DNA from: Truepera radiovictrix DSM 17093 | GTDB taxonomy: Bacteria; Deinococcota; Deinococci; Deinococcales; Trueperaceae | DNA length: 64,000 bases | NCBI RefSeq assembly: GCF_000092425.1 | Contig: NC_014221.1 | Location: 1,555,001-1,619,000 of the forward strand | Direction of reading: 5' to 3' | Part shown: positions 5,733 to 63,661 of the stretch, one piece after another | Layout: each line of letters starts with the position of its first letter | Numbering within the stretch: the first letter of the stretch is position 1 | The notes under the pieces: model-generated | What the model was told of the DNA's origin: nothing | The model's input: the letters and a program-made list of their open reading frames with translations, nothing else | The model's database searches: none | Translations under genes and position numbers: made by a program

Positions 5733-5798
5733 GTGGTGTGTGGCCAGTAGTCAGCAGTCAGTAGCCAGTAGCCAGTAGACCACGGGCCACGAGCCACC
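5733..5798. repeat. Inverted heptamer array, copy A
   Basis: Nine units of 7 bp in strict register. Left units are GTGGNNN or GTAGYCA; from about 5775 the strand sense flips to units ending GCC followed by AC (the reverse complement of GTGGC). The minus-strand EAL gene ends inside the array: its stop is at 5751-5753, so its last residues are encoded by repeat units. See the copies at 8732, 10458, 49726, 52918 and 63592. Confidence 0.85.
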
Positions 5799-6968
5799 TG
5801 CGCGCCTAGCGGCGCCGCTTCGGTAAAGGTGGCGGCAGCGCGGGGGGGCGAAGGCGTACCCCTGCAGGTACGCGACGCCGTGCGCGAGCAGCCACGCGGT
5901 CTCCTCGTCGCGCTCGACCCCTTCGGCGAGGGTGGCGACGCCGAGTTCGTGGGCGAGCTCGAGAAGCTTGGCGAGCAGCTTCTGCTTGAAGGGGTCGGTG
6001 TGGACGCCGCTGACGAGCCCCCGGTCGAACTTGACGAAGTCGGGGCGCAGCTCTGCAAGGAGCGTGAGCGAGCTGTAGCCCGAACCGAGGTCGTCGAGCG
6101 CGACCCGAAAGCCCTGGTCGCGGTAGAAGCGGATGATGGTCTGCAGGTGCTCCACGCTGCCGATGTGATCGCTCTCGACGACCTCGAAGACGACGTCGTG
6201 CGGGGCGATACCCGCTTCGCGGATGGCCTGGGTGGTGCTCCGGAGGCAGAACCTGGGGTCGTAGATGGCGGTCGGGTTGAAGTTGATAAAGAGCGGTACG
6301 CTGATGCCGCACGCCCGCGCGTTGCTGATGGCGCTCAGCCGCGCCGCGCGGTCGACTTGAAAAAGCAGGTCGGCGGCGCGGGCGGTGCTAAAGATCGCGT
6401 CCGGGTAGACCGTCTGACCGTCCTCCAGGCGCCCGCGTAGCAGGCACTCGTAGGCGTAAGGGGTCTCTAGGTCCGAAGCGGCGACGATGGGTTGGAAGGC
6501 GTTGTAAAACCGCTTTTCGTGGAGCATGGCCACGAGCCAGCTCGAGCCGAGACGGGCCCGCAGCCCGTCGAGCGTCAGGGTGCGCTCGAGCACCTTGCGC
6601 GCGCCCCGCGCCTCGCTCGGCGCGTCCCAGAAGACCCTGCAACTGCCGCGCTCGAACGCGCTGAGCGCCTCCCAAGCGGTTTCGGTGGCTTCATGCAGGC
6701 GCCCTTCGGGGACGTTAACGGCGAACGCGCCGAGCGCCGAGGGTTGCAGCTCGAAGCGCGCCGCGAGCGCCCGCCGCAGTTTGCTCCGCGTGTGCCCCAA
6801 GGGGTGCGTGAGGTGCAGCGTACCCGCTTCGTCGGCGGGCGCTGGCGCGCTCGCGCAGAAGGTGCAGCCACCCGCCTCGTGCGTCCCCGCAACGTCTGGC
6901 ACGGCCTCCTCCTGGGCCCTGGTTGTAGACGCGTCCGCCGTAGCGGTAGCGCTCGTCGTGATCGTCAT
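5751..6968 (-). CDS. EAL-domain protein, probable cyclic-di-GMP phosphodiesterase
   Basis: 405 residues from ATG 6968, preceded by GAGGGGGAC as ribosome site. The N-terminal 140 residues are unassigned and include a Cys-x-x-Cys near residue 35. An EAL domain follows. The signature is Glu-Cys-Leu-Leu-Arg (residues 174-178) in place of Glu-Ala-Leu-x-Arg. The catalytic framework is otherwise present: Phe-Asn-Pro, FEVVES, DDLGSGYSS, KFDR and AEGVE. This suggests hydrolysis of c-di-GMP, though the EAL to ECL change is unusual. The last 10 or so residues (Trp-Pro-Val-Val-Tyr-Trp-Leu-Leu) come from the heptamer array, so the natural end was probably extended by repeat growth. Confidence 0.85.
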   Translation of the reverse strand: MTITTSATATADASTTRAQEEAVPDVAGTHEAGGCTFCASAPAPADEAGTLHLTHPLGHTRSKLRRALAARFELQPSALGAFAVNVPEGRLHEATETAWEALSAFERGSCRVFWDAPSEARGARKVLERTLTLDGLRARLGSSWLVAMLHEKRFYNAFQPIVAASDLETPYAYECLLRGRLEDGQTVYPDAIFSTARAADLLFQVDRAARLSAISNARACGISVPLFINFNPTAIYDPRFCLRSTTQAIREAGIAPHDVVFEVVESDHIGSVEHLQTIIRFYRDQGFRVALDDLGSGYSSLTLLAELRPDFVKFDRGLVSGVHTDPFKQKLLAKLLELAHELGVATLAEGVERDEETAWLLAHGVAYLQGYAFAPPRCRHLYRSGAARRAGGSWPVVYWLLATDC

Positions 6969-7296
6969 CGTTGTCCCCCTCACCACTGCGCATCCTTCGG
7001 GACAGCGTAAGCTGGCCCTTCTGACAAAACGCTTACACCCAACCCACCTAGCTTAGAGGGTGGGGCGGCGGGGGGTTCACCCGCTATGGCCGCTGGAGAC
7101 CGCTCGCCGACGCTTCGTGCGCCTAGGCCAGGTCGTAACGCCCCAGAGGGCGTAGAGTCGGGCTAGCCCCTCGGCCGGAGCTCCCGTCACCGCCGAGGGG
7201 TCGCAGGAGCGCCCAGGGTGGCTTGCTCGAGTAGGCTGGCGGCGTTCGTGAACGTGCGGGGGTGGGGGCCCGGGGGCTCGCACGGAAAGGAGCAGC
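6969..7296. other. Intergenic region with two hairpins, 328 bp
   Basis: Divergent region between the EAL gene and the flavoprotein gene. Two dyads lie on the flavoprotein side: ACGCCC/GGGCGT at 7138-7153 (4-nt loop) and CCCCTCGGC/GCCGAGGGG at 7167-7200 (16-nt loop). AAAGGAG at 7286-7292 is the ribosome site for GTG 7297. I do not recognise a riboswitch class. A structured 5' leader for the flavoprotein gene is possible. Confidence 0.45.
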
Positions 7297-8679
7297 GTGG
7301 CTGACGTGGACTTTGACGTGATCATCATCGGTGCGGGTCAGGCGAGCGTCCCCCTGGCGCGGGCGCTCGCCGAAGCGGGGCGGGAGGTAGCGCTCGCCGA
7401 GCGCAAACACCTCGGCGGGTCGTGCGTCAACTTCGGTTGCACCCCGACAAAAGCGGTCATCAGCTCGGCCAAGGTGGCGCACCTCGCGCGCCGCGCGGCC
7501 GACTACGGGGTGCACGTGGGTGCTGTCGAGGTGGACCTCGAGGCGGTCTTGGCGCGCGCTGAAAGCATCCTGCAAAGCTCGAGGCAGAGCCTGCGCAGCA
7601 CCCTCGACGAGGCCGGCGTCCGCCTCATCGAGGGTAGCGCGCGCCTCGCGGGGCGCCACGGCGAGGCGTTTGGGGTGCAGGTCGGGGGCGAGACGCTGCG
7701 CGCGGGGGCGGTGGTGCTCAACACGGGGACGCGCACGGCCATCCCGCCCATTGAGGGGCTAGAGGCGCTTGTGGAGGGCGGCAGGGTGCTCACCGCCGAG
7801 ACCTGGCTCGCGCAGCGCACCGTGCCGAAGCACCTGGCGGTTCTCGGCGGGTCGTACATCGGGCTCGAGCTCGGCCAGTTCTACCGCCGCATGGGGAGCG
7901 AGGTGACGATCTTTGAGACCGCCGAGCGGATCGCCGCGCGCGAGGACGAGGACGTGTCGCGCGCGCTGCAAGCGCTTCTGGAGGGGGAGGGCGTCCGCTT
8001 CCACCTGGGCGCGCAGGTTGAACGCGTGTCGGCGCAGAGCGAGGGGTTAGAGCTGCACCTAGAGGGCGGTGAGAGGGTCGCCGCCAGTCACCTCTTGATC
8101 GCGGCGGGGCGCCAACCGAACACCGACGCGCTCGACCTATCGTCCGTGGGCCTGGAGCCGGACGACGGAGGCTTTTTAGAGGTCGACGAGCGCCTCGCCT
8201 CGAAGGTCGCGGGTATCTGGGTCGCCGGCGACATTCGCGGTGGGCCGATGTTCACCCACACCGCCTACGACGACTTCGAGGTGCTCGCCTCGCAGCTCCT
8301 CGGGGAGGGCGAGCGGACCGCCGAGCGCCTGGTGCCCTACGCCATGTTCACCGACCCGCAGCTCGGCCGCGTCGGGATGAGCGAGCGCGAGGCGAGGGAG
8401 GCGGGCTTCGAGGTCCGCGTGGCGACCTACGACATGAAGGCAAACGGGCGGGCGCGGGCGCTCGGCGAGGAGGACGGTTTTGTCAAGGTGGTCGTAGACG
8501 CGAGGACGCAGAAGCTTTTAGGTGCCGCCGTGCTCGCTGCCGAAGGGGCGGAGCTCGTTCACGTCTTCGTCGCGCTGATGAACGCGGGTGCTCCCTACAC
8601 GGTGCTCGACAGGGCGCTCCACATCCACCCGACGCTCTCGGAAGCGACCAAGAGCGTCGTCAAGGGGTTGGGTGCCTGA
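7297..8679 (+). CDS. Mercuric-reductase-like pyridine nucleotide-disulfide oxidoreductase
   Basis: 460 residues from GTG 7297 with a good Shine-Dalgarno (AAAGGAG). FAD site GAGQASVPLA at 12-21; redox disulfide Gly-Gly-Ser-Cys-Val-Asn-Phe-Gly-Cys (Cys43, Cys48); NAD(P) site LGGSYIGLELGQ; second FAD motif WVAGDI; C-terminal HIHPTLSEA with the catalytic His-x-His-Pro. The Val-Asn-Phe-Gly spacing is that of the MerA-like and YkgC-like group and not of classical lipoamide dehydrogenase. There is no N-terminal heavy-metal domain and no C-terminal Cys pair, so true Hg(II) reduction is unlikely. No mer genes or 2-oxoacid dehydrogenase genes are near. The substrate is unknown. Confidence 0.88.
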   Translation: MADVDFDVIIIGAGQASVPLARALAEAGREVALAERKHLGGSCVNFGCTPTKAVISSAKVAHLARRAADYGVHVGAVEVDLEAVLARAESILQSSRQSLRSTLDEAGVRLIEGSARLAGRHGEAFGVQVGGETLRAGAVVLNTGTRTAIPPIEGLEALVEGGRVLTAETWLAQRTVPKHLAVLGGSYIGLELGQFYRRMGSEVTIFETAERIAAREDEDVSRALQALLEGEGVRFHLGAQVERVSAQSEGLELHLEGGERVAASHLLIAAGRQPNTDALDLSSVGLEPDDGGFLEVDERLASKVAGIWVAGDIRGGPMFTHTAYDDFEVLASQLLGEGERTAERLVPYAMFTDPQLGRVGMSEREAREAGFEVRVATYDMKANGRARALGEEDGFVKVVVDARTQKLLGAAVLAAEGAELVHVFVALMNAGAPYTVLDRALHIHPTLSEATKSVVKGLGA

Positions 8680-8731
8680 AGCGCTCGAGGTCTGGCGGCG
8701 TGGCGGTTGCGGAGCGCTAGCTCGAGAGCTT

Positions 8732-8808
8732 GTGGCAAGTGGTCTGTGGCTAGTGGACTGCAAGTTAGCGGCCACTTGCTACGAGCCACGAGCCGCGCGC
8801 CACACACC
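8732..8808. repeat. Inverted heptamer array, copy B
   Basis: Eleven consecutive 7-bp units in one register (starts at 8732, 8739, 8746 and so on to 8802). The first four are GTGGNNN; the later ones read NNNNGCC with AC opening the next unit. It fills the gap between two convergent genes and ends 2 nt before the stop codon of the Rieske oxidoreductase. Confidence 0.88.
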
Positions 8809-8810
8809 CC

Positions 8811-10394
8811 TCACCCTTGTGCAGTCCTGAGGCGCGCCGCCCAGTCCACCGCCCGGCCCCGCAACTCATCGGCGGCGGGGAGGCTTCTAAGCCGCATGCA
8901 CTCGTGGACGCGGCAGAGATCGGCGTCGCGCCCGGCACCCAGGACGGCGGCGAGGCGGCCCTTTTGGAGGTAGTACGCCAAAAAGTCCCAGGCGTCTAGG
9001 TCGCCTTGGATGACGACCTCGTCCCACGCCTCGGCGTGCCCGACGTAGCGCAGCCCTTTGCCGTGCTGCAGCGTCCAGAAAAAGGGCACGCCGTCAAAGG
9101 TCTCCGCGCTCCCCAACATGGCCCGCGCGGCGGCGCGCCCGGTCTGCATCGCCACGCGCCAGTGCTCGACCCGGATGCGCCCGGGGCCGTAGGGGTTCGG
9201 GTAGCGCGCGACGTCCCCGGCGGCGTAGAGCGGTCCCGGTGCGCCCACGACCCGAAACGACCCGTCGACGGCGAGGCTGCCGTCGTCCTCTAGAGGTACC
9301 CCCGCCAGAAACCCCGTCGCGGGTTCGACCCCGACGCCGACGAGCACGAGGTCGGCCTCCAGCGCGCGGCCGTCCTCTAACACGACCCCGGCGACGCGCC
9401 CCTCCCCTTCAAAGCGCGCGACCTGCGCCTCGGTCAGGAGCGTGACGCCGTTTTGGCGGTGCAGCTCGGCGAACGCGCGCCCCACGGCGCTCCCCAAAAG
9501 GCGTTCGAAGGGGACGGTGTCGGGGGTAATGGCCGTGACCGCGAGGCCGCGCGCGCGCAGGCTCGAGGCGCACTCCATGCCGATAAAGCTCGCCCCGACG
9601 AGCACCACGCGCCGCGCCCCCTCGGCCTCCGAGAGGAGCGCCCGCGCGTCGTGGAGGGTGCGCAGCGTGTGGACGCCCTCGAGCTCGGCGCCGGGCAGCT
9701 CGAGGCGCCGCGGCGCACCGCCGGTCGCGAGCAGCAGCGCGTCGTAGGCCAGCGTCTCGCCGCCCTCCAGGGTGAGGGTCTGCGCGGCCGGGTCGACGCG
9801 CGTCACCTGAGCCTCGAGCCGTTCGATGTCGCATGCGCTGTAAAAGGCCCCGTCACGCAGCGGGATCCAGCCCTTCGTCGCCTCCTCTTTGAGGTAGTCC
9901 TTGCTTAAGAGCGTGCGGTCGTAGGGGCCGTCTTGGCCCACAAGCAGCACGCGCCCCCGAAACCCCGCCTCGCGCAGGGCTTCGGCCGCCGCCGCGCCCG
10001 CCGCGCCGGCGCCCAGGATGACGAAGCGGCGCGCGTCCGCCTCCGGCGCCCCCGCCCCCTCGGGGAGGACGCGCCCTAACACGGGGTCGGGGAGGGTGAC
10101 GAAGACCTCGTCGCCCTCGACGCGGGTCTCAAAGCGCGGCAGGGCGTCTAGGGCGGGGGGCTCGAGGAGCGCCCCCGTCGCGGCGGCGAAGCAGGCGTGG
10201 TGCCACGGGCAGACCAGGCGGCCGTCACTCAGGATACCCTCGGCGAGCAGCGCGCCGTAGTGGGTGCAGCGGCCGTAGAGGGCGTGCAGCTCGCCCCCTA
10301 CGCGGACGAGTACGAGGTCGGTCTCGCCGACCTTGACGGGGTAGAGTTCGCCTTCGCGCACGTCGCGCGCTCTAGCTACGCGGTGAGTTGTCAT
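8811..10394 (-). CDS. Rieske [2Fe-2S]/FAD-dependent NAD(P)H oxidoreductase (AIFM3-like)
   Basis: 527 residues from ATG 10394. Residues 1-105 form a Rieske domain with Cys43-x-His45 and Cys62-x-x-His65 as cluster ligands. A type II flavin reductase follows: FAD motif LGAGAAGAAAAEAL near 145, the ATGGAPRRL strand, NAD site VGASFIGMECA near 285, and YAAGDVA near 425. The C-terminal reductase domain ends the protein. This arrangement matches AIF-like 3 and similar bacterial oxidoreductases; the electron acceptor is unknown. The frame is open 500 nt further upstream, but that part is translated heptamer array and was rejected. A -10 element 8 nt before the ATG supports this start. Confidence 0.9.
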   Translation of the reverse strand: MTTHRVARARDVREGELYPVKVGETDLVLVRVGGELHALYGRCTHYGALLAEGILSDGRLVCPWHHACFAAATGALLEPPALDALPRFETRVEGDEVFVTLPDPVLGRVLPEGAGAPEADARRFVILGAGAAGAAAAEALREAGFRGRVLLVGQDGPYDRTLLSKDYLKEEATKGWIPLRDGAFYSACDIERLEAQVTRVDPAAQTLTLEGGETLAYDALLLATGGAPRRLELPGAELEGVHTLRTLHDARALLSEAEGARRVVLVGASFIGMECASSLRARGLAVTAITPDTVPFERLLGSAVGRAFAELHRQNGVTLLTEAQVARFEGEGRVAGVVLEDGRALEADLVLVGVGVEPATGFLAGVPLEDDGSLAVDGSFRVVGAPGPLYAAGDVARYPNPYGPGRIRVEHWRVAMQTGRAAARAMLGSAETFDGVPFFWTLQHGKGLRYVGHAEAWDEVVIQGDLDAWDFLAYYLQKGRLAAVLGAGRDADLCRVHECMRLRSLPAADELRGRAVDWAARLRTAQG

Positions 10395-10402
10395 GGTGCC
10401 CC

Positions 10403-10408
10403 ACTCTA
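10403..10408 (-). promoter_or_regulatory. -10 element TAGAGT for the Rieske oxidoreductase
   Basis: Minus-strand TAGAGT ends 8 nt before ATG 10394; no ribosome site follows, which indicates a leaderless transcript. Confidence 0.5.
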
Positions 10409-10457
10409 CCGGGTGGCCGCAGCCCGCTCCGGAGCCCGGCTTGCAGTTTGGGGGCCG

Positions 10458-10611
10458 GTGGCGCGTGGCAAGTGGCGTGTGGCGTGTGGCAAGTGGCAAG
10501 AGGTAGGTGGCGTGTGGCAAGTGGCCCGTGGCTGGTAGGCCGCGAACCACACGCCACGAACCACAAGCCGCGAACCACAAGCCACGAACTACAACCCACA
10601 GGCCACCAACC
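10458..10611. repeat. Inverted heptamer array, copy C (largest, 22 units)
   Basis: 154 bp made of 22 units of 7 bp without any slip in register. Units 1-12 are GTGGCNN with few exceptions (GAGGTAG, GTAGGCC). Units 13-22 are the complementary form (such as ACAAGCC, ACGAACC). Folding would give an imperfect hairpin of about 70 bp. Unlike the other copies it lies between two divergent genes. Confidence 0.92.
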
Positions 10612-10631
10612 CCGTGCCCTCCGCAACCCGG

Positions 10632-10637
10632 TACACT
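10632..10637 (+). promoter_or_regulatory. -10 element TACACT, leaderless start of the HD gene
   Basis: TACACT ends 6 nt before GTG 10644 and decides between that GTG and an upstream in-frame start at 10614. Confidence 0.6.
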
Positions 10638-10643
10638 AGCTCT

Positions 10644-11159
10644 GTGACGTGGTTTTTCCTCGATGGCGCCCCGCCGCGCCTGGTGAGCACCCTCTGGCGG
10701 ACCGCGCAGGCGTTCGTACCCCGCCTGGCGCGCGCCGACGACGCTTTTGCCGCGCGCGTCTTGCCGCGCGCCGAGTACGCGCTCTACCGGCGGATGGACG
10801 TGCGCGACCGCGCGCACGCGTGCGGGGTCGCTCGCGCGCTCCTGACGCTCGAGCCCGCCGCCCCCAGCACGCTCTTGCGCGCCGCTCTGCTGCACGACGT
10901 CGGCAAGTCGGGGCGCCGTTACCGCCCTCTAGAGCGCATCCTGGTCGCCCTCTACACCCCCCGCGCGCTGCCGCACGCGCCGCGCCTGCGGGGGCTGCGC
11001 GGGGCGTGGCAACGGCGGCGCCACCACCCCCGCTACGGCGCCGAGCTGATCCTCGCCGCCGGCGGCGACCCGCGCGTCGCCGAGCTCGTCGCGCGGCACC
11101 ACCACCCGGCGGGTGACCCGGAGGCCGAGCTCCTCCGGCGGGCCGATGCGCGCTTCTAA
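10644..11159 (+). CDS. HD-domain phosphohydrolase
   Basis: 171 residues from a leaderless GTG. The metal-binding pattern of HD hydrolases is visible: an early His in DRAHACGVA, the paired His-Asp in LLHDVGKSG near residue 90, then Arg-His-His-Pro and a run of His in ARHHHP near 150. Such proteins cleave phosphate esters of nucleotides or nucleotide second messengers; the substrate here is not predictable. It overlaps folC by 14 nt and so heads the folate gene cluster, but that position alone does not show a folate role. Confidence 0.82.
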   Translation: MTWFFLDGAPPRLVSTLWRTAQAFVPRLARADDAFAARVLPRAEYALYRRMDVRDRAHACGVARALLTLEPAAPSTLLRAALLHDVGKSGRRYRPLERILVALYTPRALPHAPRLRGLRGAWQRRRHHPRYGAELILAAGGDPRVAELVARHHHPAGDPEAELLRRADARF

Positions 11160-12447
11160 AGACCCCGAGCTGCAAGGGGCGCTCGACTGGCTCTTCGCCC
11201 GCCAGCGCTTCGGGGTTCAGCTGGGGCTCGAGCGGATGCGCGCGCTGCTAGCCGCCTTAGACCATCCGGAAGGGGCCTTCGAGAGCCTGTTGGTCGGCGG
11301 TACGAACGGCAAGGGGAGCGTCACGAGCACGCTCGCGTCGATTTTGCACGCGGCGGGGCGCCCCGTGGGCCGCTTTACCAGCCCGCACCTCACGCACTTT
11401 CGGGAGCGCTTTACGCTCGCGGGGGAGCCCGTCGGGGAAGCGCCGCTGCTGAGGGCCCTCAAGGACGTGCGGCCTCACGCCGAGCGCTTGGGCGCCACCT
11501 TTTTCGAGATCACCACGGCCGTCGCGCTTTTGCTCTTCGCCCGCGCGGGCGTTACAGTCGCCGTCATGGAGGTCGGGCTCGGCGGGCGCTTGGACGCCAC
11601 GAACGCCCTTTCGCCGCGCCTCAGCGTCATCACCGGGGTCGCGCTCGACCACACCGAGGTCTTGGGGGGGACGGTCGCCGAGATCGCCATTGAAAAGGCC
11701 GGGATCCTCCGGCCCGGCCGTTTGGCGCTGACCGGCGCGGCGGGGGAGGCGCTCGCGGTCATCGCGCGCGAGGCTGCGCGCTTGGGGGCCCCCCTGTGGC
11801 GGCTCGGGCACGAGATCTCGGTCACGGCGCGCGACGAAGGCTGGCGGGGCTCGAGCCTCACCGTCGGGACGCCGGCGGGGGCGCTGGCGGTGCGCACCCC
11901 CCTCATCGGCGCCCACCAGGTGCCCAACACGGCGCTCGCGGTCGCGGCGGCGCGCGCCCTGGAGGTCCCGGACGCGGCGATCGTGCGCGGCGTGGCGGGG
12001 GTGCGCTGGCCGGGGCGGCTCGAGCCCGTGCCCTACCGGGGGCGCACGGTGCTGCTCGACGGGGCGCACAACCCGGCGGCGGCGGCGGCGCTCGCGGCGA
12101 CCTTGGAGCGCCTCGGGGTGGCCCCCGCGCTCCTCGTCTTCGGCACCTCAGCCGACAAGGACGCCCGCGAGATGGTCCGCGCCCTCGCCGGGAGCGTGCG
12201 GGCGACCATCGCCACGCGCGCCCGCCTCAGCCCGCGCTCGAGCCCGCCCGAAACCCTGGCCGCGCTCTGGCGCGACGCGGCGCGGCCCGCGCAGGTCGCC
12301 CCCACGCCGGAGGCGGCGCTGGCGCTGGCGCTCGAGAGCAGCCAGCCCGGCGAGACGGTGGTGGTCGCCGGCAGCCTCTACCTCGTCGGCGAGGTGCGCC
12401 CGCTGCTCGTGGGGGAAGCGGGTGAGGGGTGGGAGCGGCTCCAGTGA
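11146..12447 (+). CDS. folC: Folylpolyglutamate synthase/dihydrofolate synthase
   Basis: 433 residues. Adds glutamate to dihydropteroate and to reduced folates with ATP. The P-loop is GGTNGKGSV (51-59). The folate-binding and Mur-ligase features follow: Thr-Ser-Pro-His-Leu near 80, Glu-Val-Gly-Leu-Gly-Gly-Arg-Leu-Asp-Ala-Thr-Asn near 145, Asp-His near 170, and the C-terminal Leu-Asp-Gly-Ala-His-Asn-Pro. Length is typical of a bifunctional FolC. An open start 33 nt upstream was rejected because family members begin close to this ATG. It overlaps the HD gene and is followed by folP after an AT-rich gap. Confidence 0.96.
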   Translation: MRASKDPELQGALDWLFARQRFGVQLGLERMRALLAALDHPEGAFESLLVGGTNGKGSVTSTLASILHAAGRPVGRFTSPHLTHFRERFTLAGEPVGEAPLLRALKDVRPHAERLGATFFEITTAVALLLFARAGVTVAVMEVGLGGRLDATNALSPRLSVITGVALDHTEVLGGTVAEIAIEKAGILRPGRLALTGAAGEALAVIAREAARLGAPLWRLGHEISVTARDEGWRGSSLTVGTPAGALAVRTPLIGAHQVPNTALAVAAARALEVPDAAIVRGVAGVRWPGRLEPVPYRGRTVLLDGAHNPAAAAALAATLERLGVAPALLVFGTSADKDAREMVRALAGSVRATIATRARLSPRSSPPETLAALWRDAARPAQVAPTPEAALALALESSQPGETVVVAGSLYLVGEVRPLLVGEAGEGWERLQ

Positions 12448-12448
12448 G

Positions 12449-12531
12449 GCAAACAAAATTTTCACGAACCAGAGTATTGTGAATTAAATAACATGAAGTC
12501 CTACCCCGCCGAGAGCCGGTACGATAAACCC
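12449..12531. other. AT-rich folC-folP spacer with leaderless folP promoter
   Basis: Bases 12450-12495 are strikingly AT-rich for this genome and carry a short dyad (TTCAC and GTGAA, 12465-12482). TACGAT at 12520-12525 ends 6 nt before GTG 12532 and is the likely -10 element of a promoter internal to the folate cluster. An ATG at 12493 is open in frame but would lie upstream of this element. Confidence 0.5.
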
Positions 12532-13446
12532 GTGACCACCCCACCCTCCAGACCCGCGTCCACCCCAACCGGCCACGGCCTGACGTTCGCCTACCCCGTC
12601 CCCGGGGGCGTCCGCACCGCTGCGGGGTGGCGCTGGCGCTGGTCGGGGGTCGCCGTCATGGGGATTCTCAACGTGACCCCCGATTCGTTCTCCGACGGCG
12701 GCCGCTACCTCGCGCCGGAGCGGGCCGCAGCGCACGCGCAGGCGCTCATCGCGGCGGGGGCGGCGGTGCTCGACGTCGGCGCCGAGTCGACCCGCCCCGG
12801 CGCCGAGCCCGTCCCCGCCGAGGTCGAGCTCGACCGGCTGTTGCCGGTGCTCGCGCGCCTTAAAGGGGCGCCCGTGCCGCTCAGCGTCGACACCTACAAA
12901 CCCGAGGTCGCCGCCGCGGCGCTCGCGGCGGGCGCGCACCTCGTCAACGACGTCAGCGGTCTGCGCGACCCCGAGATGGTGCGCGTCTGCGCGGCCGCGG
13001 GGGCGCCGGCCGTGGTGATGCACATGCAGGGGACGCCGAAGACGATGCAGGACGCACCCCACTACGAGGACGTGGTGGGGGAGGTGCGGGGCTTTTTGCA
13101 GGCGCGCGCCGCCGCGGCGCTCGAGGCGGGCGTCCCGAGCGTGCTGCTCGACCCCGGCATCGGCTTCGGCAAGACCCTGGCGCACAACCTGGCGCTGTTG
13201 CGGAACCTGCGGGCGTTCACCGCGCTCGGCCACCCCGTCTTGCTGGGCGCTTCGCGCAAGGGGATCGTGCGGCTGCTCACGGGCGCCGAAGCGCCCGAGG
13301 CGCGCGACGCGGGCTCCCTGGCGCTGCACCTCTGGGGGGTGCAGCAGGGGGTCAGCATGGTGCGGGTGCATGAGGTGGCCGCCCACGTCAGCGCGCTTAA
13401 AGCGTGGGCGGCGCTCGCGGACGAGGGCGCTGTGGGGGAGACCTGA
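12532..13446 (+). CDS. folP: Dihydropteroate synthase
   Basis: 304 residues from GTG 12532. Joins 4-aminobenzoate to the pterin pyrophosphate made by FolK; the target of sulfonamides. Signature VMGILNVTPDSFSDGG near residue 40 and DVGAESTRPGA near 85. Further TIM-barrel motifs are NDVSGLRDPEM, VVMHMQG, LDPGIGFGKT and LGASRKG. A Thr/Pro-rich stretch of about 20 residues precedes the barrel and is longer than usual. It is followed by folB after a 1-nt gap. Confidence 0.96.
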   Translation: MTTPPSRPASTPTGHGLTFAYPVPGGVRTAAGWRWRWSGVAVMGILNVTPDSFSDGGRYLAPERAAAHAQALIAAGAAVLDVGAESTRPGAEPVPAEVELDRLLPVLARLKGAPVPLSVDTYKPEVAAAALAAGAHLVNDVSGLRDPEMVRVCAAAGAPAVVMHMQGTPKTMQDAPHYEDVVGEVRGFLQARAAAALEAGVPSVLLDPGIGFGKTLAHNLALLRNLRAFTALGHPVLLGASRKGIVRLLTGAEAPEARDAGSLALHLWGVQQGVSMVRVHEVAAHVSALKAWAALADEGAVGET

Positions 13447-13447
13447 G

Positions 13448-13801
13448 GTGGACCGGATCGTGCTCGCGGGGCTCGAGTTTCACGCCCACCACGGCGTCTT
13501 CGCGGCAGAAGGGGAGCTGGGCGCGCGCTTCGTCGTCGACGTCGAGCTCTTTTTGCCCCTCTCACGCACCGACGACCTCGCGGCGACGGTCGACTACGGC
13601 GCCGTCTACGCGCTCGTGCGGGCGCGCGTGACAGGGGAGCGCTTCGCCCTCATCGAGGCCCTGGCGGTCGACATCGCGACCCGCCTTTTGGCCGCGCACC
13701 CCCCCCTGCGGCGCGTGCTGGTGCGGGTGCACAAACCGCACGCGCCGCTGCCGGGGGTGTTCCGCGACGTCTTTGCGGAGGTCGTGCGTGAGCGTTCGTG
13801 A
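13448..13801 (+). CDS. folB: Dihydroneopterin aldolase
   Basis: 117 residues from GTG 13448, one base after the folP stop. Converts dihydroneopterin to 6-hydroxymethyl-dihydropterin and glycolaldehyde. Family motifs: LAGLEFHAHHGVFAAE near the N-terminus (substrate-binding Glu at its end), VDYGAVYALV near 55, and Leu-Ile-Glu-Ala-Leu-Ala near 75 with the conserved Glu. Lys of VHKPHAPLPG near 95 is the catalytic lysine. The stop overlaps the start region of folK. Confidence 0.93.
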   Translation: MDRIVLAGLEFHAHHGVFAAEGELGARFVVDVELFLPLSRTDDLAATVDYGAVYALVRARVTGERFALIEALAVDIATRLLAAHPPLRRVLVRVHKPHAPLPGVFRDVFAEVVRERS

Positions 13802-14321: not shown

Positions 14322-14369
14322 CGCGGTAGCGCCTCACGCCGAGGGGCGCAGGCGGCGGCGTGGGCGCGG

Positions 14370-14375
14370 TAAGCT
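14370..14375 (+). promoter_or_regulatory. -10 element TAAGCT of the metallophosphoesterase gene
   Basis: TAAGCT ends 8 nt before ATG 14384. No ribosome site is seen; a leaderless transcript is likely. Confidence 0.5.
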
Positions 14376-14383
14376 TGGGCGGT

Positions 14384-15088: not shown

Positions 15089-15113
15089 CGTTTTAAGGTG
15101 CCAGCACTATGAT
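15085..15113 (+). promoter_or_regulatory. Promoter CTGACG-17-TATGAT for the small ORF at 15138
   Basis: -35 CTGACG at 15085-15090 overlaps the stop codon of the metallophosphoesterase; -10 TATGAT at 15108-15113 with a 17-nt spacer. AAGGA at 15127-15131 serves as ribosome site. Confidence 0.65.
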
Positions 15114-15137
15114 AGCTTAGGTATCAAGGATGAGATC

Positions 15138-15383: not shown

Positions 15384-15434
15384 TCATTTACGTTAGTTGG
15401 TGCTTGCTGCTCTAGGGCTGCCAAGCTGCGAGAA

Positions 15435-15477: not shown

Positions 15478-15494
15478 CGCCTATAAAACAGTAC

Positions 15495-49725: not shown

Positions 49726-49767
49726 GTGGCGCGTGGCCCGTAGCGTGTGGGGCGGGTAGCGTGGGCC
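49726..49767. repeat. Heptamer array, copy D (left-arm form only)
   Basis: Six 7-bp units in register (GTGGCGC, GTGGCCC, GTAGCGT, GTGGGGC, GGGTAGC, GTGGGCC), starting 9 nt after the permease stop codon. The complementary arm seen in other copies is missing. Confidence 0.7.
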
Positions 49768-52908: not shown

Positions 52909-52917
52909 TGGCGGCGT

Positions 52918-52983
52918 GTGGCGCGCGGCCGGTAGCGCGTGGGGGACCCGCCACAGATCACACGTCACGAGCCACGGGCCACC
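52918..52983. repeat. Inverted heptamer array, copy E, inside the purine operon
   Basis: Nine 7-bp units in register (GTGGCGC, GCGGCCG, GTAGCGC, GTGGGGG, then ACCCGCC, ACAGATC, ACACGTC, ACGAGCC, ACGGGCC), between the uraH stop and the allB start. It may form a hairpin that affects mRNA stability or read-through into allB. Confidence 0.82.
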
Positions 52984-52995
52984 CCGAGGGCGCCC

Positions 52996-55142: not shown

Positions 55143-56389
55143 TGGAGCTGCCCGTCGACGCCGCCCGCATAAGCCGCGAGCTCGACACCCTCGCGGGGTT
55201 TACGGACGACCCCGCCCCGGCCGTGACCCGCGTCGTCTACACCCCGACCGACCTCAAAGCGCGCGCCTACGTGCGCGCGCTTTTGCGCGAGGCCGGCCTG
55301 ACGCTGCGCGAGGACGGCCTGGGCAACCTCTTCGCCCGCTGGGAGGGGGCGCGCCCCGAGCTCTCGGCCGTGGCCACGGGGTCGCACCTAGACGCCATCC
55401 CGCACGCGGGCCGCTTCGACGGCACGGTAGGCGTCCTGGGCGCGCTGGAGGCCTTTCGCGCCCTCCGCGCGGCGGGGTTTGTACCCCTGCGGCCGCTCGA
55501 GCTCGTCGTCTTTACCTCCGAGGAGCCCACGCGCTTCGGGGTCGGCTGCTTGGGGTCGCGCGCGCTCGCCGGGGTGCTCACCCCCGAACAGCTGGCCGCG
55601 CTGCGCGACGCGGACGGTGTGAGCGTCCCCGAGGCCGCGCGCGCGGCCGGTTTCACCGCCCCCTTGGAGGCGGTCGCGCTGCGCGCGGGGCACTTTCACG
55701 CCTTCGTCGAGCTGCACATCGAGCAGGGGCCGCAGCTCGAGGCTGCTGGCGTCCCCATCGGCGTCGTGACGGCCATTGCCGCGCCCGCGACGCTGCACCT
55801 CACGCTGACGGGCAGCGGCGGCCACGCCGGGGCGGTTCTCATGCGCGGCCGCCGCGACGCGCTCCTTGCGGCCGCCGAGGTCGCGCTCGCGGTCGAGGCC
55901 GCCGCGCTCGCCACCGAAGACCCCGACACGGTCGCCACGGTCGGTATCCTAGACGTCCACCCGCGCGCGGTGAACGCCATCCCAAACCGCGCCTTTTTGA
56001 CGGTCGACGCCCGCGACACCCACGAGGGCCGCCGCGACGCCCTCGTCGCCCGCATCCGCGCCGACGTTCAAGAGGTCGCCGAGCGGCGGGGGGTTGCGGC
56101 CGAGGTCGTGCTCGTCAACGCCGACCCGCCCGCCGCCTGCGACCCCGCCCTCGTCGCCGCTGCCGAGCGCGCCGCCGCAGCTGCCGGTCTCCCGTCGCAG
56201 CGGTTGGTGAGCCGCGCCTACCACGACACCCTCTTCATGGCGCGCGTGTGCCGCGTGGGGATGGTCTTCATCCCCTCCCAGGGCGGCGTCAGCCACCGCC
56301 CCGACGAGTACAGCAGCCCGCAGGAGGTCGCCCAGGGGGTCGAGGTCCTGGCGCGGACGTTGGCGGCGCTCGCCTCGGAACCCGATTAG
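55142..56389 (+). CDS. allC: Allantoate amidohydrolase
   Basis: 415 residues from ATG 55142 (TGATG overlap with allE). M20-family dimetal enzyme that converts allantoate to ureidoglycine, ammonia and CO2. First metal pair in ATGSHLDAIPHAGRFDGTVGVL near 80-100, Glu pair in VFTSEEPTRFG near 128, FVELHIEQGPQL near 190, lid/dimer Gly-His-Ala-Gly near 223, and His in PSQGGVSHRPDEYS near 382. N-carbamoyl amino-acid hydrolases look similar, but the context makes AllC far more likely. The 3' end overlaps the convergent HNH gene by 4 bp. Confidence 0.92.
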   Translation: MELPVDAARISRELDTLAGFTDDPAPAVTRVVYTPTDLKARAYVRALLREAGLTLREDGLGNLFARWEGARPELSAVATGSHLDAIPHAGRFDGTVGVLGALEAFRALRAAGFVPLRPLELVVFTSEEPTRFGVGCLGSRALAGVLTPEQLAALRDADGVSVPEAARAAGFTAPLEAVALRAGHFHAFVELHIEQGPQLEAAGVPIGVVTAIAAPATLHLTLTGSGGHAGAVLMRGRRDALLAAAEVALAVEAAALATEDPDTVATVGILDVHPRAVNAIPNRAFLTVDARDTHEGRRDALVARIRADVQEVAERRGVAAEVVLVNADPPAACDPALVAAAERAAAAAGLPSQRLVSRAYHDTLFMARVCRVGMVFIPSQGGVSHRPDEYSSPQEVAQGVEVLARTLAALASEPD

Positions 56390-57105
56390 GCTTTTCGGCG
56401 GCGCGCGAGGAGCGCCTTGACCTCCTCGAGGGAGTAAGCAGGTTTTCTCTGGTGAATGATGGCGTGACAGTTGGGGCACACGGGGCGCAAGTCCGTCAGA
56501 GGATCGACAACATATTCCTCACCGATTTGAGAGAGTTCGGTGAGGTGATGAACGTGGATAACACCCCTGAACGCTTCGCCGTAAACCTCACCAAACGAAA
56601 AGCCGCAGATGTAGCACGCCGTGCCGTAGTGCTCGAGGCAGCGTCGCCGCGCCTCTGGGTTGCGCTCGTACGCGTTCGTGAGCGTGCGGACGAGCTTTCC
56701 TTCCCGTAACCACTGTTCTTCCTCGGGGTCTTGTTGCGGCTCGGCAGCAGCGACCAGGCCGAGCTGCTCGAGCGCCTCTTGAACTTGGGGTCTTAAGGTC
56801 CACGCGCATTCGCCCGTCGGCCAGGCCATCGTAACCAGAGACTGGACCGGGTACTCAAGGGCTAGGCCTAGCGCGTCGGCGAGGCGCCTGCCGAGCTTGC
56901 CGTAGTGGAGGTTGGCCGCGCCAAAGTGCTTGTAGCCTGTGCGGCGCGCCATCTCCTTCGCCGTCACCGTCATGCGCGGTGCCGCGTAGTGCGCCCTCAA
57001 CAGCTTGAGGTCGTTTTCTGTCAGGCGTAGCTGACTCAGCGCACGAAAGACGTCAGCAGCTGGCCGCGCCTCCAGATGCGCCTCGGCGTCGTCGAAGTTG
57101 AGCAT
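56386..57105 (-). CDS. HNH endonuclease, McrA-like
   Basis: 239 residues. The N-terminal part (1-85) is helical with GYKHFGAANLHYGKLGRRL, seen as a separate module in related nucleases. A linker of about 60 residues follows. The HNH domain at 165-238 carries the zinc pairs Cys-Tyr-Ile-Cys and Cys-Pro-Asn-Cys, the active IHVHHLTELS and Asp-Leu-Arg-Pro-Val. The arrangement is that of McrA-like enzymes that cut modified DNA. DNA is lower in GC than the operon around it. The gene interrupts the purine cluster on the opposite strand. TAGCAT at 57115-57120 is a possible -10. Confidence 0.82.
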   Translation of the reverse strand: MLNFDDAEAHLEARPAADVFRALSQLRLTENDLKLLRAHYAAPRMTVTAKEMARRTGYKHFGAANLHYGKLGRRLADALGLALEYPVQSLVTMAWPTGECAWTLRPQVQEALEQLGLVAAAEPQQDPEEEQWLREGKLVRTLTNAYERNPEARRRCLEHYGTACYICGFSFGEVYGEAFRGVIHVHHLTELSQIGEEYVVDPLTDLRPVCPNCHAIIHQRKPAYSLEEVKALLARRRKA

Positions 57106-57215
57106 GGTGCGCCAATGCTACCAGCTCGTGACGTAACGCTGGCCTCGTAAGGCGCTTCGGCGCGTGCAGTGGGGTATGGGGAACGCTGGGCCGCTCTGCA
57201 TTTTAGGGGATGGCT

Positions 57216-58181
57216 CTAGGACGCCCCCGCAGCGCCCCGGGAGCGGCGCACGAGCGGCAGCAGCCGCGATACGAGCGCCAGCACGGGGAGTTCGACGAGC
57301 GGCCCGACGATCAGGGCGAGCGCCACGAGGGGGCGGCCCGGAAACGCCGTGACGGCTACCGCGAGCGCCACGGGTGAGTTGCGCGCGAGCGTCGCGAAGA
57401 CGAGCCCCGTGCGGGCGGCCTTGCTCAGCCCGGCGGCGCGCCCGAGCCGCAGGGCGAGGGCGAAGTTGACGGCGAAAAAGAGGAGCAGCGGCGGCAGCAG
57501 CTGGAGCGCCACCTCGGGTTGCGCCAGCAGCGCCCCCCCTTGCGAGGCGAAGGTGGCCGCGATCGCCCCGCAAAGAGCGGCGAGCTGCAGCGGCTCGAGG
57601 GTGGGTAAAAGCGCCTCCAAGCGCGCCCCTCGGCCCGTGCGGCGTGCCAGGGTGCGCACCAACGTCGCGGCGGCGAGCGGCAGGGCGAGCGCCCACACGA
57701 CGCTCTCGGCGAGCGCGCCCGGCGGCAGCGGTACGAGCGTGCCGGCGAGGAGCAGCAGGTAGAGCGGCAGCAGCAGCAGCTGCAGCACCAGGTGCCAGGG
57801 GAGCAGCGCAGCCCCGAGGCGGACGTCGCCGCGGGCGAGGCCGGTAAAGACCAGGTACCAGTCGGTGCAGGGCGTCACGAGCAGCATGAGGAGCCCGATG
57901 CGCAGGTCGGGCTGACCCCGCAGAAAGAGCGCCCCGAGGAGCCACCCGAAAAGGGGCGTCCAAAGGAAGTTGAGCCCCAAGCTGAGGCCCGTAAACCGGA
58001 GGTTGCGAAAGGCCCCCCCGAGGCCGCGCAGCGGGACGCGCAGAAACACCCCGGTGAGCATTACCATGAGCAAGGGCAGGACGAGCCCTTCGGCCCCGGC
58101 GGCGAGCTGCGGCGCCTGCCCGAGCGCGAGCCCGAAAAGCGCGGCAGCGAGGATCAGCAGGGGTTGCGTCAGTTCGGCCAC
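57216..58181 (-). CDS. ACR3/bile-acid:sodium symporter family transporter
   Basis: 321 residues from GTG 58181. About 10 membrane helices. LNFLWTPLFGWLLG near 70, the substrate-site segment LVTPCTDWYLVFTGLARGD near 101-119, including the conserved Cys of ACR3 arsenite carriers, and FATLARNSPVALAVAV near 270. The Cys makes an arsenite efflux role possible. No arsR or arsC gene is in the region, so a different organic anion is equally open. Transcribed away from xdhA. Confidence 0.83.
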   Translation of the reverse strand: MAELTQPLLILAAALFGLALGQAPQLAAGAEGLVLPLLMVMLTGVFLRVPLRGLGGAFRNLRFTGLSLGLNFLWTPLFGWLLGALFLRGQPDLRIGLLMLLVTPCTDWYLVFTGLARGDVRLGAALLPWHLVLQLLLLPLYLLLLAGTLVPLPPGALAESVVWALALPLAAATLVRTLARRTGRGARLEALLPTLEPLQLAALCGAIAATFASQGGALLAQPEVALQLLPPLLLFFAVNFALALRLGRAAGLSKAARTGLVFATLARNSPVALAVAVTAFPGRPLVALALIVGPLVELPVLALVSRLLPLVRRSRGAAGAS

Positions 58182-58187
58182 CCCGTG

Positions 58188-58193
58188 AGTCTA
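58188..58193 (-). promoter_or_regulatory. -10 element TAGACT of the ACR3-like gene
   Basis: Minus-strand TAGACT ends 6 nt before GTG 58181; leaderless. The divergent xdh promoter starts 15 nt away. Confidence 0.55.
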
Positions 58194-58207
58194 CCGCCGC
58201 GCTACCC

Positions 58208-58236
58208 TTGCAACGGACGCCTGGAGCGCGCACAAT
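58208..58236 (+). promoter_or_regulatory. xdh promoter TTGCAA-17-CACAAT
   Basis: -35 TTGCAA at 58208-58213 and -10 CACAAT at 58231-58236 with a 17-nt spacer; ATG 58242 follows after 5 nt, so the xdhA mRNA is leaderless. Confidence 0.68.
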
Positions 58237-58241
58237 GGGGA

Positions 58242-59587
58242 ATGTCGGCTCTTTTTCGCCTTAACGGCGCCCCCGTGCGCGCCGAGACCCCCTCGCAGAT
58301 GCTGCTCTACTTCCTGCGCGCGCGCGGCCTCACGGGCACCAAGGAGGGCTGCGCCGAGGGCGACTGCGGCGCCTGCACCGTGGCGCTGCGCACGCCGGCG
58401 GGCTTCGAGGCGGTCAACAGCTGCCTCCTGCCGGTGGGCGCGGTCGCCGGCCGCGACGTCGTCACGGTCGAGGGGCTCGCTCAAGGGGGGACGCTGCACC
58501 CCGTGCAGGAGGCACTCGCGGCCGCAGGTGGGTCGCAGTGCGGCTTCTGCACGCCGGGGTTCGTGATGAGCCTCTTTGCCGCGTTCTACAGCGGCGAGCG
58601 GGGGGACGACGTCCTCGGGGGCAACCTCTGCCGCTGCACGGGCTACGTCCCCATCCGCGCGGCGCTGCGCTCGCTCCCGGCGCCGAACCCGGACGACCCC
58701 TTCCTGAGGCCGCCCGCGCCCCTTCCCGCCCCGAGCGCCATGGCGGGCTTTTTCGCGCCCACGTCCCTCCCCGAGCTCTTCGCGCTGCTCGCGGAGCACC
58801 CCGAAGCCAAGCTCCTCGCCGGCGGCACCGACGTCGGGGTCGAGATGAACACCGTCGGGCGGGTCTACCCGGTGCTGGTGTCGCTCGCGTCGGTTGCGGA
58901 GCTGCAGGCGCTCGAGGACGCGGGAGACGCCGTCCGGGTGGGTGCGGGGGTGACGCTCTCGCGGCTAGAGCGCGAACTAAGGGGCGTTTTTCCCGCCCTA
59001 GACGACATGCTCGCCCACTTCGCCGCGCGCCCCATCCGTAACCGCGCGACGGTTGGCGGCAACTTGGGGACCGCTTCGCCCGTCGGCGACCTCGCACCGG
59101 TCTTTTTGGCCCTGGACGCGCAGCTCGAGCTGGTCTCGGCGGCGGGCGCGCGGACGCTCCCGCTCGGGGACTTTTTCACCGGTTACCGCGCCACCGCGCT
59201 CCGGCCGGGCGAGCTCATCGCCGCCGTGCGGCTCCCCAAACGCCAACCCGCGCTCACGCGCGCCTACAAGGTCAGCAAGCGCGCCGCTGATGACATCAGC
59301 ACGGTTTCGGCGGCCTTCGCCGTCGCGCTGAGTGCGGCGGGCCGCGTCGAGACGGCCCGCCTCGCCTACGGCGGGGTCGCGGCCACCCCGGTGCGCGCGC
59401 TTGCTGTCGAGCGCGCGCTCGTGGGGCGGCCCTGGAGCGCGGCGACCGTCCGCGAGGCGGCGGCGGCGCTGCGCGCGGCCTTCACCCCGCTCTCCGACCT
59501 GCGCGGGAGCGCGGCGTACCGCTCGCGTTTGGTCGGCAACCTCTTCGAGCGGTTTTTCTATGAAAGCACCCCCGAGGCGGCGCGCCC

Positions 59588-59591
<4 letters not shown>
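58242..59591 (+). CDS. xdhA: Xanthine dehydrogenase, iron-sulfur and FAD subunit
   Basis: 449 residues from ATG 58242. [2Fe-2S] cluster 1: Cys residues in GCAEGDCGACTV near 40-51 plus a later Cys near 68. Cluster 2: CGFCTPGF near 105 and CRCTGY near 132. FAD domain (from about 170): LLAGGTDVGVEMN near 193, NRATVGGNLGTASPVGDLAPV near 267, and a final helical part. It passes electrons from the Mo site to NAD. The long upstream open frame overlaps the ACR3 gene and was rejected. The stop overlaps xdhB (ATGA). Confidence 0.94.
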
Positions 59592-61927
<2,336 letters not shown>

Positions 61928-61930
61928 GGC

Positions 61931-62725
61931 GTGAGCTGGCTCGCGGCCGCCGCTGAGCTCGCCCGCGCGGGCACCCCCTTCGTGCTCGTGACGCTCGCGC
62001 GCGTGCGCGGCCACGCTCCGCGCCGCGCGGGGAGCAAGATGGTGGTGACCGCGCGCGAAGCGCACGGCAGCGTCGGCGGCGGCAACCTCGAGGCCACCGC
62101 CACCGCGCGCGCCCGGGAGCTCCTCGCATCTGGCGCGCGCGACCCCGAGCTGCTGAGCTTGCCCCTGGGCCCGCAGGGGGGCGCGCACGGGGTGCAGTGC
62201 TGCGGCGGCGAGGTGACGCTCCTCTTGGAGCCCTTCGCCCTCGCGCGCCCCAGCGTCGCCCTCTTCGGCGCGGGCCACGTCGGGTGGGCGCTCGTACAGG
62301 TGCTCGGCACCCTGCCCTTAAACCTCCACCTCATCGACTCGCGCGCGAGCGCCCTCGCGCGCCCCCTGCCGAGCCCGCTCGCCGCGACCCTCACGCGCCA
62401 CCACGCCCCGGTGCCCGAGAGCGCGCTCGCGGCGCTCCCCGCGGGCACCCACCTGCTCATCCTGACCCACGACCACGCCGAGGACCTGGCGGTGCTCGAG
62501 CGCGCCCTGCGGGGCCCCTTCGGTATGGTCGGGCTCATCGGTTCGGCGAGCAAGTGGGCCCACTTCCGGCGCGAGCTCGCGCGGCAGGGCCTCTCCGAAA
62601 CCGACTTAGCGCGCGTGGTGACGCCCATCGGCGACCCGGAGCTGGGCAAGAGCCCGCCGGCGATCGCCATCGGCGTGGCGGCGCAGCTCCTCAGCGTTCT
62701 AGAGCTCCCCGAAGGGCTCTTTTAG
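61931..62725 (+). CDS. xdhC: Xanthine dehydrogenase accessory protein XdhC
   Basis: 264 residues from GTG 61931, 3 nt after xdhB. Chaperone that binds molybdenum cofactor, aids its sulfuration and loads XdhB. VTLARVRGHAPRRAGSKMVV near 20-39, GSVGGGNLEA near 45 and the Cys-Cys-Gly-Gly motif in HGVQCCGGEVTLLLE near 90. A Rossmann-like C-terminal domain follows with VALFGAGHVGWAL near 115, LTHDHAEDLAVL near 178 and GLIGSASKWAHF near 200. Length is near that of Rhodobacter XdhC. Confidence 0.94.
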   Translation: MSWLAAAAELARAGTPFVLVTLARVRGHAPRRAGSKMVVTAREAHGSVGGGNLEATATARARELLASGARDPELLSLPLGPQGGAHGVQCCGGEVTLLLEPFALARPSVALFGAGHVGWALVQVLGTLPLNLHLIDSRASALARPLPSPLAATLTRHHAPVPESALAALPAGTHLLILTHDHAEDLAVLERALRGPFGMVGLIGSASKWAHFRRELARQGLSETDLARVVTPIGDPELGKSPPAIAIGVAAQLLSVLELPEGLF

Positions 62726-62727
62726 CG

Positions 62728-63576
62728 GTGATCACCCCCCGCACCCCCCCTTCCCGCGAGCGCGTCGCACACCACTACGATGAGCTCGACCCCCTCTACC
62801 GCCGCCTCTGGGGGGAGCACCTGCACCACGGCCTCTGGCGCTCGGGTCGCGAGTCACCCGCGAGCGCGACGCTGAGGCTTTTAGACGAGGTCGCCGCGCG
62901 CGCCGCGCTGCGCCCCGGGATGGCCGTGTGCGACGTCGGCGCGGGGTACGGCGCCACCGCGCGCTACCTGGCGCAGCGGCTGGGCGCCCACGTCACCGCG
63001 CTCACCCTCTCGAGCGCCCAAGCCGCGTACGCGCGCGCCCAACCCCTCGCCTCCGGCGCCCCGCCCCCGCGCTACTTGCTCCGCGACTGGCTCGACAACG
63101 GCCTGCCGGACGCCGCCTTCGACGCGGTGCTGGCGCTCGAGAGCACCGAGCACATGCCGCTCGCGCCCTGCTTGCGCGAGGTCTACCGGGTGCTCAAACC
63201 GGGCGGCCGCTTCGTCGCCTGCGTCTGGCTCGCCCGCGAGGGGGCGGGGGCGCTCGAGGTGCGCGCCCTACTGGAGCCCATCTGCCGCGAGGGCCGCCTC
63301 GTGGGGCTATGCAGCTTGCGCGAGTACGGTGCGGCGCTCGAGCGCGCCGGCTTCGCCGTTAAGCGCGCCGACGACGTCAGCCCGCTCGTGCGCCGCACCT
63401 GGGGGGTGGTGCTCGGCCGCCTCGCGTGGGGCCTGCTCACGCGAGGCGAGCTCTGGGCGTATCTGCTGGGCGCGGGGCACCTCGAGCGCCCGTTTGGCGT
63501 GACCGTGCTGCGGTTGTGGCTCGCCTACCGCACCGGCGCGCTGCGCTACGGGATCTTTAGCGCCGTGCGGCCCTAG
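62728..63576 (+). CDS. Class I SAM-dependent methyltransferase
   Basis: 282 residues from GTG 62728, 2 nt after xdhC. Opening HYDELDPLYRRLWGEHLHHGLW near 12-33 and motif I CDVGAGYGATARYLA near 67 are those of the sterol/tocopherol/cyclopropane-type methyltransferases. Post-motif pattern LALESTEHM near 130 and VLKPGGRFVA near 154 follow. A hydrophobic C-terminal region may bind a lipid-like substrate. Link to purines is by position only; its substrate is unknown. Confidence 0.87.
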   Translation: MITPRTPPSRERVAHHYDELDPLYRRLWGEHLHHGLWRSGRESPASATLRLLDEVAARAALRPGMAVCDVGAGYGATARYLAQRLGAHVTALTLSSAQAAYARAQPLASGAPPPRYLLRDWLDNGLPDAAFDAVLALESTEHMPLAPCLREVYRVLKPGGRFVACVWLAREGAGALEVRALLEPICREGRLVGLCSLREYGAALERAGFAVKRADDVSPLVRRTWGVVLGRLAWGLLTRGELWAYLLGAGHLERPFGVTVLRLWLAYRTGALRYGIFSAVRP

Positions 63577-63591
63577 CGGTCGCCCCGCGCC

Positions 63592-63661
63592 GTGGCCCGT
63601 GGCTTGTAGCCCGTGGTCCACCAGCCACAAACCACGAGCTACAAACCACGATCCACGAGCC
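63592..63661. repeat. Inverted heptamer array, copy F
   Basis: Ten 7-bp units in register: GTGGCCC, GTGGCTT, GTAGCCC, GTGGTCC, then ACCAGCC, ACAAACC, ACGAGCT, ACAAACC, ACGATCC, ACGAGCC. It fills the gap between two convergent genes and ends 3 nt before the amidohydrolase stop codon. Confidence 0.88.

What the first reader, a model, noticed from the sequence alone, without database searches (positions are those of the whole stretch)
5733..63661. Dispersed family of inverted 7-bp repeat arrays in strict register
Six intergenic arrays (5733-5798, 8732-8808, 10458-10611, 49726-49767, 52918-52983, 63592-63661) are built of degenerate heptamers near GTRGYNN. In five, the units change to the reverse-complement form midway, always in the order GTGGC arm then GCCAC arm, and the 7-bp register is kept across the switch. 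The largest has 22 units without a slip. Copies A, B, D, E and F start or end within 10 nt of a stop codon or overlap it. The topology suggests a hairpin element that grows by heptamer slippage or templated copying, perhaps acting in 3' ends of mRNAs. Heptamer STRRs of cyanobacteria are tandem but I know of none with this palindromic layout; that comparison is from memory.
Basis: partly seen in the sequence, partly recalled or inferred. Interest (0 to 1): 0.82.

Follow-up and report, generated by a model that had tools for sequence, protein, structure and literature searches.

The report
Inverted heptamer arrays bordering genes
Between genes of the radiation-tolerant bacterium Truepera radiovictrix lie dozens of short arrays of a loose 7-letter DNA word, usually as a forward block followed by its mirror image right after a gene's stop codon; it is a new sequence version of a layout already published for Xanthomonas, and its purpose is still unproven.

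Summary
The six arrays are real. A motif detector that does not assume register finds exactly these six in the window and none in shuffles. The genome (3,260,398 bp, the published size of Truepera radiovictrix) has 130 three-unit matches against 0 for the reversed control pattern. In 51 arrays examined, the GTRGYNN arm precedes the complementary arm in 27 of 30 adjacent pairs. Arrays hug stop codons, are common between convergent genes and rare between divergent ones. The register is not strict genome-wide: two phases dominate (10 and 7 of 23). Arms are not copies of each other, flanks are unrelated, and there is no terminator T-run.

The layout is not new. Rehm et al. 2015 (PMC4692102) describe degenerate Xanthomonas heptamers with the same gene-border placement and 70-75 inverted pairs per genome. 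New here is a version with another consensus that cannot form three-layer G-quadruplexes, patchy in Deinococcota, and seen with the same forward-then-reverse order in a Bacteroidetes and a Woesearchaeota genome. The G-rich strand is stop-codon-rich, which may explain part of its orientation. Best reading: slippage-born heptamer arrays kept at gene borders and transcribed as 3'-end or intercistronic hairpins. The function is inferred, not shown.

The parts
5729..5801 (.). Array A: about 7 GTRGYNN units then about 3 complementary units; overlaps the 3' end and TGA stop (5751-5753) of the EAL-domain gene on the minus strand, whose last 17 codons lie in the array
8727..8815 (.). Array B: about 4 GTRGYNN units then about 8 complementary units; between convergent genes, overlapping the stop of the Rieske/reductase gene (8811)
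10453..10618 (.). Array C: the largest, 22 heptamers, 11-12 per arm; between divergent gene starts, not at a stop codon
49721..49767 (+). Array D: GTRGYNN units only, 4 nt after the stop of the lactate permease gene, upstream of a superoxide dismutase gene
52913..52982 (.). Array E: about 5 units per arm, filling the spacer between a HIUase/transthyretin gene and an amidohydrolase gene; the same-genus genome G001 has about a 10-nt spacer here
63592..63662 (.). Array F: 4 GTRGYNN units then 6 complementary units, between convergent genes, 15 nt and 2 nt from their stops

Best explanation
These are Truepera's version of a known but little-studied class: degenerate heptamer arrays at gene borders, often in inverted pairs. 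Shown: unit GTRGYNN with conserved core and free positions 6-7, forward arm before reverse arm, attachment to stop codons, avoidance of divergent spacers, fast turnover between species. Inferred: arms arise and change by replication slippage, mostly in two-unit (14-bp) steps. They survive at gene borders because the G-rich strand carries stop codons and so can end or follow a reading frame, while the C-rich strand would be read through. When a forward and a reverse arm face each other across a spacer, the transcript folds into a long, imperfect, register-tolerant hairpin. That hairpin most likely acts as a 3'-end or intercistronic RNA structure (exonuclease barrier or insulator, as REP elements do), not as a T-tract terminator.
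For: Genome-wide family with zero reversed-pattern controls. LR 27 against RL 3, non-random spacer phase. Arrays at 20 of 47 convergent but 3 of 46 divergent junctions, p = 7e-5 (stretches were chosen for arrays, so only the contrast counts). Near-stop arm is GTRGYNN in 23 of 28 tandem cases, with most arm-to-stop distances between -5 and +18 nt. TAG is the stop of 36 of 56 array-adjacent genes against 121 of 286 others. The G-rich strand has 4.1 stops per 100 nt against 1.1 on the C-rich strand (17.6 against 1.3 in a Bacteroidetes genome). Core positions stay conserved in arms that did not seed the search (0.83-0.87 at positions 1, 2, 4 against 0.43-0.45 at 6 and 7). Two-unit similarity z = +3.2, adjacent z = -2.4. 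Arrays fold far better than composition-shuffled sequence (mean z -5). Published Xanthomonas arrays have the same placement and are transcribed.
Against: No RNA data here: transcription, hairpin formation and any effect are unproven. Same-locus arms are not better partners than swapped arms, so selection for pairing within a locus is not seen. Array C lies between divergent starts, where a 3'-end role makes no sense. In G013, units within an arm are no more alike than units of different arms, which plain slippage does not predict.
Confidence: 0.45

Rival explanations
1. No function: slippage-born junk. Arrays are tolerated only in spacers, orientation next to genes follows from stop codons in the G-rich strand, and heterogeneous units are the survivors because identical neighbours are lost by slippage.
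For: Unrelated flanks and almost no unit strings shared between loci; empty site at E in the same genus; stop-rich G-strand; adjacent units less alike than chance; patchy distribution.
Against: Positions 1, 2 and 4 conserved while 6 and 7 are free, also in unseeded arms; LR order 27:3 including tandem gene pairs; a degenerate palindrome kept at the orthologous site of L046 array 2 in G001.
Confidence: 0.3
2. Bidirectional transcription terminators.
For: Enriched between convergent genes, hairpin-capable, bidirectional.
Against: No T-run: 0.157 T in the 10 nt after arrays against 0.154 background, 1 of 102 ends with at least 5 T; some tandem spacers leave only 9-16 nt to the next start.
Confidence: 0.1
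3. Binding sites read at 7-nt pitch by a dedicated protein, of which the inverted layout is a by-product.
For: GT-G core conserved with free positions in three genomes of two families; several units per arm are the norm.
Against: No candidate factor; occurrence does not follow kinship; ascertainment by the GTRGY seed inflates core conservation.
Confidence: 0.08
4. Mobile palindromic elements of REP, MITE or similar type, moved by a transposase.
For: In G013 arrays flank a conserved 100-130 bp core and in Oceanithermus they sit in long mosaic intergenic elements; GTRG resembles the GTAG foot of REPs (from memory).
Against: Y1 transposase (PF01797) is absent from array-rich G013, G042, G046, G050 and G059; Truepera array flanks unrelated; arms not copies.
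Confidence: 0.07

Closest known systems
Heptameric GGGAATC / (GGGANTN)n repeats of Xanthomonas and GGGGA(C/T)T of Nostoc (Rehm et al. 2015, PMC4692102)
   Different: Other consensus (GTRGYNN); no G-triplets, and A at position 3 in 27-46% of units, so the three-layer G-quadruplex proposed there does not apply; phyla Deinococcota, Bacteroidota and Woesearchaeota; arms often directly abutting.
TAACTGA heptamer repeats of Beggiatoaceae, cyanobacteria and Bacteroidetes (MacGregor 2015, PMC4679880)
   Same: Intergenic heptamers, patchy across phyla, forward orientation gives stops in all three frames.
   Different: Mostly upstream of start codons, direct repeats with a single inverted case, little degeneracy.
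Cyanobacterial STRR heptamers (Calothrix, cited in PMC4692102)
   Same: Heptanucleotide tandem arrays.
   Different: Described as tandem; few inverted pairs reported for Nostoc in PMC4692102.
REP/BIME palindromes with RAYT transposases
   Same: Intergenic palindromes near gene ends.
   Different: No heptamer register there; no Y1 transposase in most array-rich relatives.

Membership tests
Xanthomonas-type heptameric gene-border arrays (Rehm et al. 2015) | 7-nt tandem unit with conserved and degenerate positions | tested here: met
Xanthomonas-type heptameric gene-border arrays (Rehm et al. [quoted passage not shown] rare between divergent genes | tested here: met
Xanthomonas-type heptameric gene-border arrays (Rehm et al. 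2015) | Paired arrays in convergent (inverted) orientation | tested here: met
   27 LR against 3 RL
Xanthomonas-type heptameric gene-border arrays (Rehm et al. 2015) | GGGAATC consensus with G-triplets able to form G-quadruplexes | tested here: not met
   Consensus GTRGYNN; A at position 3 in 27% (Truepera) and 46% (G013) of units. So it is a variant of the kind, not a member of the GGGAATC family itself
Xanthomonas-type heptameric gene-border arrays (Rehm et al. 2015) | Preference for four units | tested here: inconclusive
   3-4 good units per arm is the mode, but the seed pattern needs 3 units
REP / RAYT system | Y1-type transposase in the genome | tested here: not met
   Absent from G013, G042, G046, G050 and G059; Truepera itself has 11 matches
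Intrinsic terminator | GC hairpin followed by a T-run | tested here: not met
MITE or mobile palindrome | Conserved element ends or near-identical dispersed copies | tested here: not met
   Truepera flanks unrelated, arms not shared; target-site duplications not tested
Slippage-born simple sequence repeat | Neighbouring units more alike than distant ones | tested here: not met
   lag 1 z = -2.4, lag 2 z = +3.2
Known Rfam RNA | Match above gathering score | tested here: not met
   none in the window

The most novel reading that the evidence does not exclude
Inverted heptamer arrays with the same grammar (GTRG core, 7-nt pitch, G-rich strand pointing out of the reading frame) are a general gene-border device of bacteria and archaea that does not depend on G-quadruplexes, read as RNA hairpins or by a common cellular machine.
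Probability: 0.15. Interest if true: 0.7.

Novelty: new variant of a known kind. Interest (0 to 1): 0.42.

Why it matters
The known Xanthomonas heptamer arrays were linked to G-quadruplex formation by a four-unit preference matching four G-tracts. Here is a family with the same anatomy (heptamer pitch, gene-border placement, inverted pairs) whose units often lack even GG, found in Deinococcota, a Bacteroidetes and an archaeal genome. That argues the anatomy needs another cause, such as stop-codon content, slippage geometry or hairpin formation in mRNA, and gives clean cases to test it. The empty site at array E in a same-genus genome suggests a simple deletion experiment in a culturable species.

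Tried and rejected
REP/RAYT origin: Y1 transposase missing from array-rich relatives. Canonical terminator: no T-run. Templated copying of one arm from the other: same-locus arms hardly more alike than cross-locus. Mobile element in Truepera: flanks unrelated. Known RNA family: none in the window, and only a tRNA in ten G013 loci. G-quadruplex: too many GTAG units. An accession guessed for a Nostoc plasmid is not held, so the inverted layout in cyanobacteria was not tested directly. Literature searches for heptamer repeats in Truepera or Oceanithermus found nothing on point.

Full report
Identity of the genome. The window lies at 1,555,001-1,619,000 of a single 3,260,398-bp contig, the exact published size of Truepera radiovictrix RQ-24 (PMC3072082). 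Relative G046 has the chromosome size of Oceanithermus profundus, 2,303,940 bp.

Observation. The six arrays are as described. The detector, in which forward (L, GTRGYNN) and reverse (R) states may meet in any phase, finds exactly these six and none in shuffled windows. In the whole genome the exact 3-unit pattern occurs 130 times and the 4-unit pattern 60 times, each with zero matches of the reversed control. I fetched 37 stretches around matches, 400 kb with the window, and found 51 arrays. A motif-free lag-7 scan of the same DNA gives 12 periodic segments, 11 of them in this family.

Layout. Adjacent arms are L then R in 27 cases and R then L in 3. All five paired arrays of the window share one register, but genome-wide the spacer is 6 mod 7 in 10, 3 mod 7 in 7 and other values in 6 of 23 pairs. 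So the register is biased, not strict.

Place. A simple codon-usage gene caller puts arrays at 20 of 47 convergent, 27 of 236 tandem and 3 of 46 divergent junctions. Because the stretches were selected for arrays, only the contrast between junction types is informative (convergent against divergent, p = 7e-5). In tandem spacers the arm nearest the stop codon is L on the sense strand in 23 of 28. Several stop codons are the TAG of a GTAG unit, and TAG is over-represented among array-adjacent genes (36 of 56 against 121 of 286). The EAL gene of the window ends inside array A.

How arms change. Positions 6 and 7 vary freely while 1, 2 and 4 are conserved, also in arms that did not seed the search. 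Neighbouring units are less alike than shuffled ones and units two apart are more alike in Truepera; Oceanithermus shows the two-unit signal (z = 2.3); in G013 there is no within-arm homogeneity at all. The two arms of a locus are not copies of each other, and although arrays fold strongly (mean z -5), arms swapped between loci fold as well. Flanks of different arrays are unrelated, apart from one pair of loci.

Comparison between species. In the same-genus genome G001 the exact 4-unit pattern is absent. At array E it has about a 10-nt spacer in place of the array; at one further site (L046 array 2) it has a shorter, diverged inverted repeat, and at others the spacers differ or are rearranged. 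Within the phylum the 5-unit pattern is found in 16 of 111 genomes, mainly Truepera, G013 and the Oceanithermus genus; other genomes have a few matches or none. In G013 the arrays adjoin a conserved 100-130 bp core with heptamer-like sequence at its other end. In Oceanithermus they sit in long mosaic intergenic elements with a further heptamer type.

Beyond the phylum. A strict palindromic pattern over about 85,000 species hits five records: a Gemmatimonadetes, an Uhrbacteria, two Bacteroidetes and a Woesearchaeota genome. In the Bacteroidetes genome G113 paired arms are 10 LR to 0 RL, with L arms starting at stop codons and several R arms ending within a few bases of the next gene's start; in the archaeal genome it is 8 to 1, with weaker placement. 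The pattern search selects for this motif, so sharing of the consensus is not evidence of common descent. Control counts are high in G111 and G113, meaning those genomes hold other heptamer families too.

What is known. Rehm et al. (PMC4692102) describe (GGGANTN)n heptamers in Xanthomonas with conserved and degenerate positions, a four-unit preference, G-rich strand within 50 bp of the stop on the sense strand, scarcity between divergent genes, transcription, and 70-75 inverted pairs. This is the same anatomy. They also cite the idea that 7 nt is the stretch contacted by DNA polymerase, favouring slippage. MacGregor (PMC4679880) notes that TAACTGA arrays carry stops in all frames, which limits where they can lie. 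The same holds here in part: the G-rich strand carries 4.1 stops per 100 nt against 1.1 on the other strand, and 17.6 against 1.3 in G113; but only 9 of 77 Truepera arms have stops in all three frames, against 26 of 27 in G113.

Judgement. The feature is real and belongs to a known kind, with a new motif that rules out the three-layer G-quadruplex as the general cause of the anatomy. Steps shown: family, layout, placement, turnover, non-identity of arms. Steps inferred: slippage origin, coding constraint on orientation, RNA hairpin role.

Noticed in passing
window 4925-10709: Compared with the same-genus genome G001, whose flanking matches lie only about 174 nt apart, this stretch with the EAL gene, a disulphide oxidoreductase gene and a Rieske/reductase gene is extra in Truepera; arrays A, B and C all lie in it.
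   Followed up: partly
L068-L097 (G013): A family of composite intergenic elements: heptamer array, conserved GAAnnnCnTTTCTAGAAAG and about 100 bp core, then a second heptamer-like array; no Rfam match. One array (L076) adjoins what reads like an IS1-type transposase end.
   Followed up: partly
L106-L125 (Oceanithermus profundus size): Long mosaic intergenic elements joining GTRGTRC arrays, GTRGCYT arrays, a GGCAACGAAACCTCGGCTT segment, CCCCGGATCAAGTCCGGGG palindromes and RGGNNGT heptamers, some containing two or three arrays.
   Followed up: no
L041 8730-8793 and L041 3930-3990: A sister heptamer of type GAGCAAT/GAGTAAT near GTAGTCA arrays, the only other lag-7 periodic DNA in 400 kb.
   Followed up: no
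G000 genome: Eleven Y1 (IS200/IS605-type) transposase matches; seven have the same score and three others share another, suggesting identical copies, while array-rich relatives have none.
   Followed up: no
L182, L227 (Woesearchaeota): GTRGYNN arrays directly joined to AGGNNGN heptamer arrays, as in Oceanithermus.
   Followed up: no
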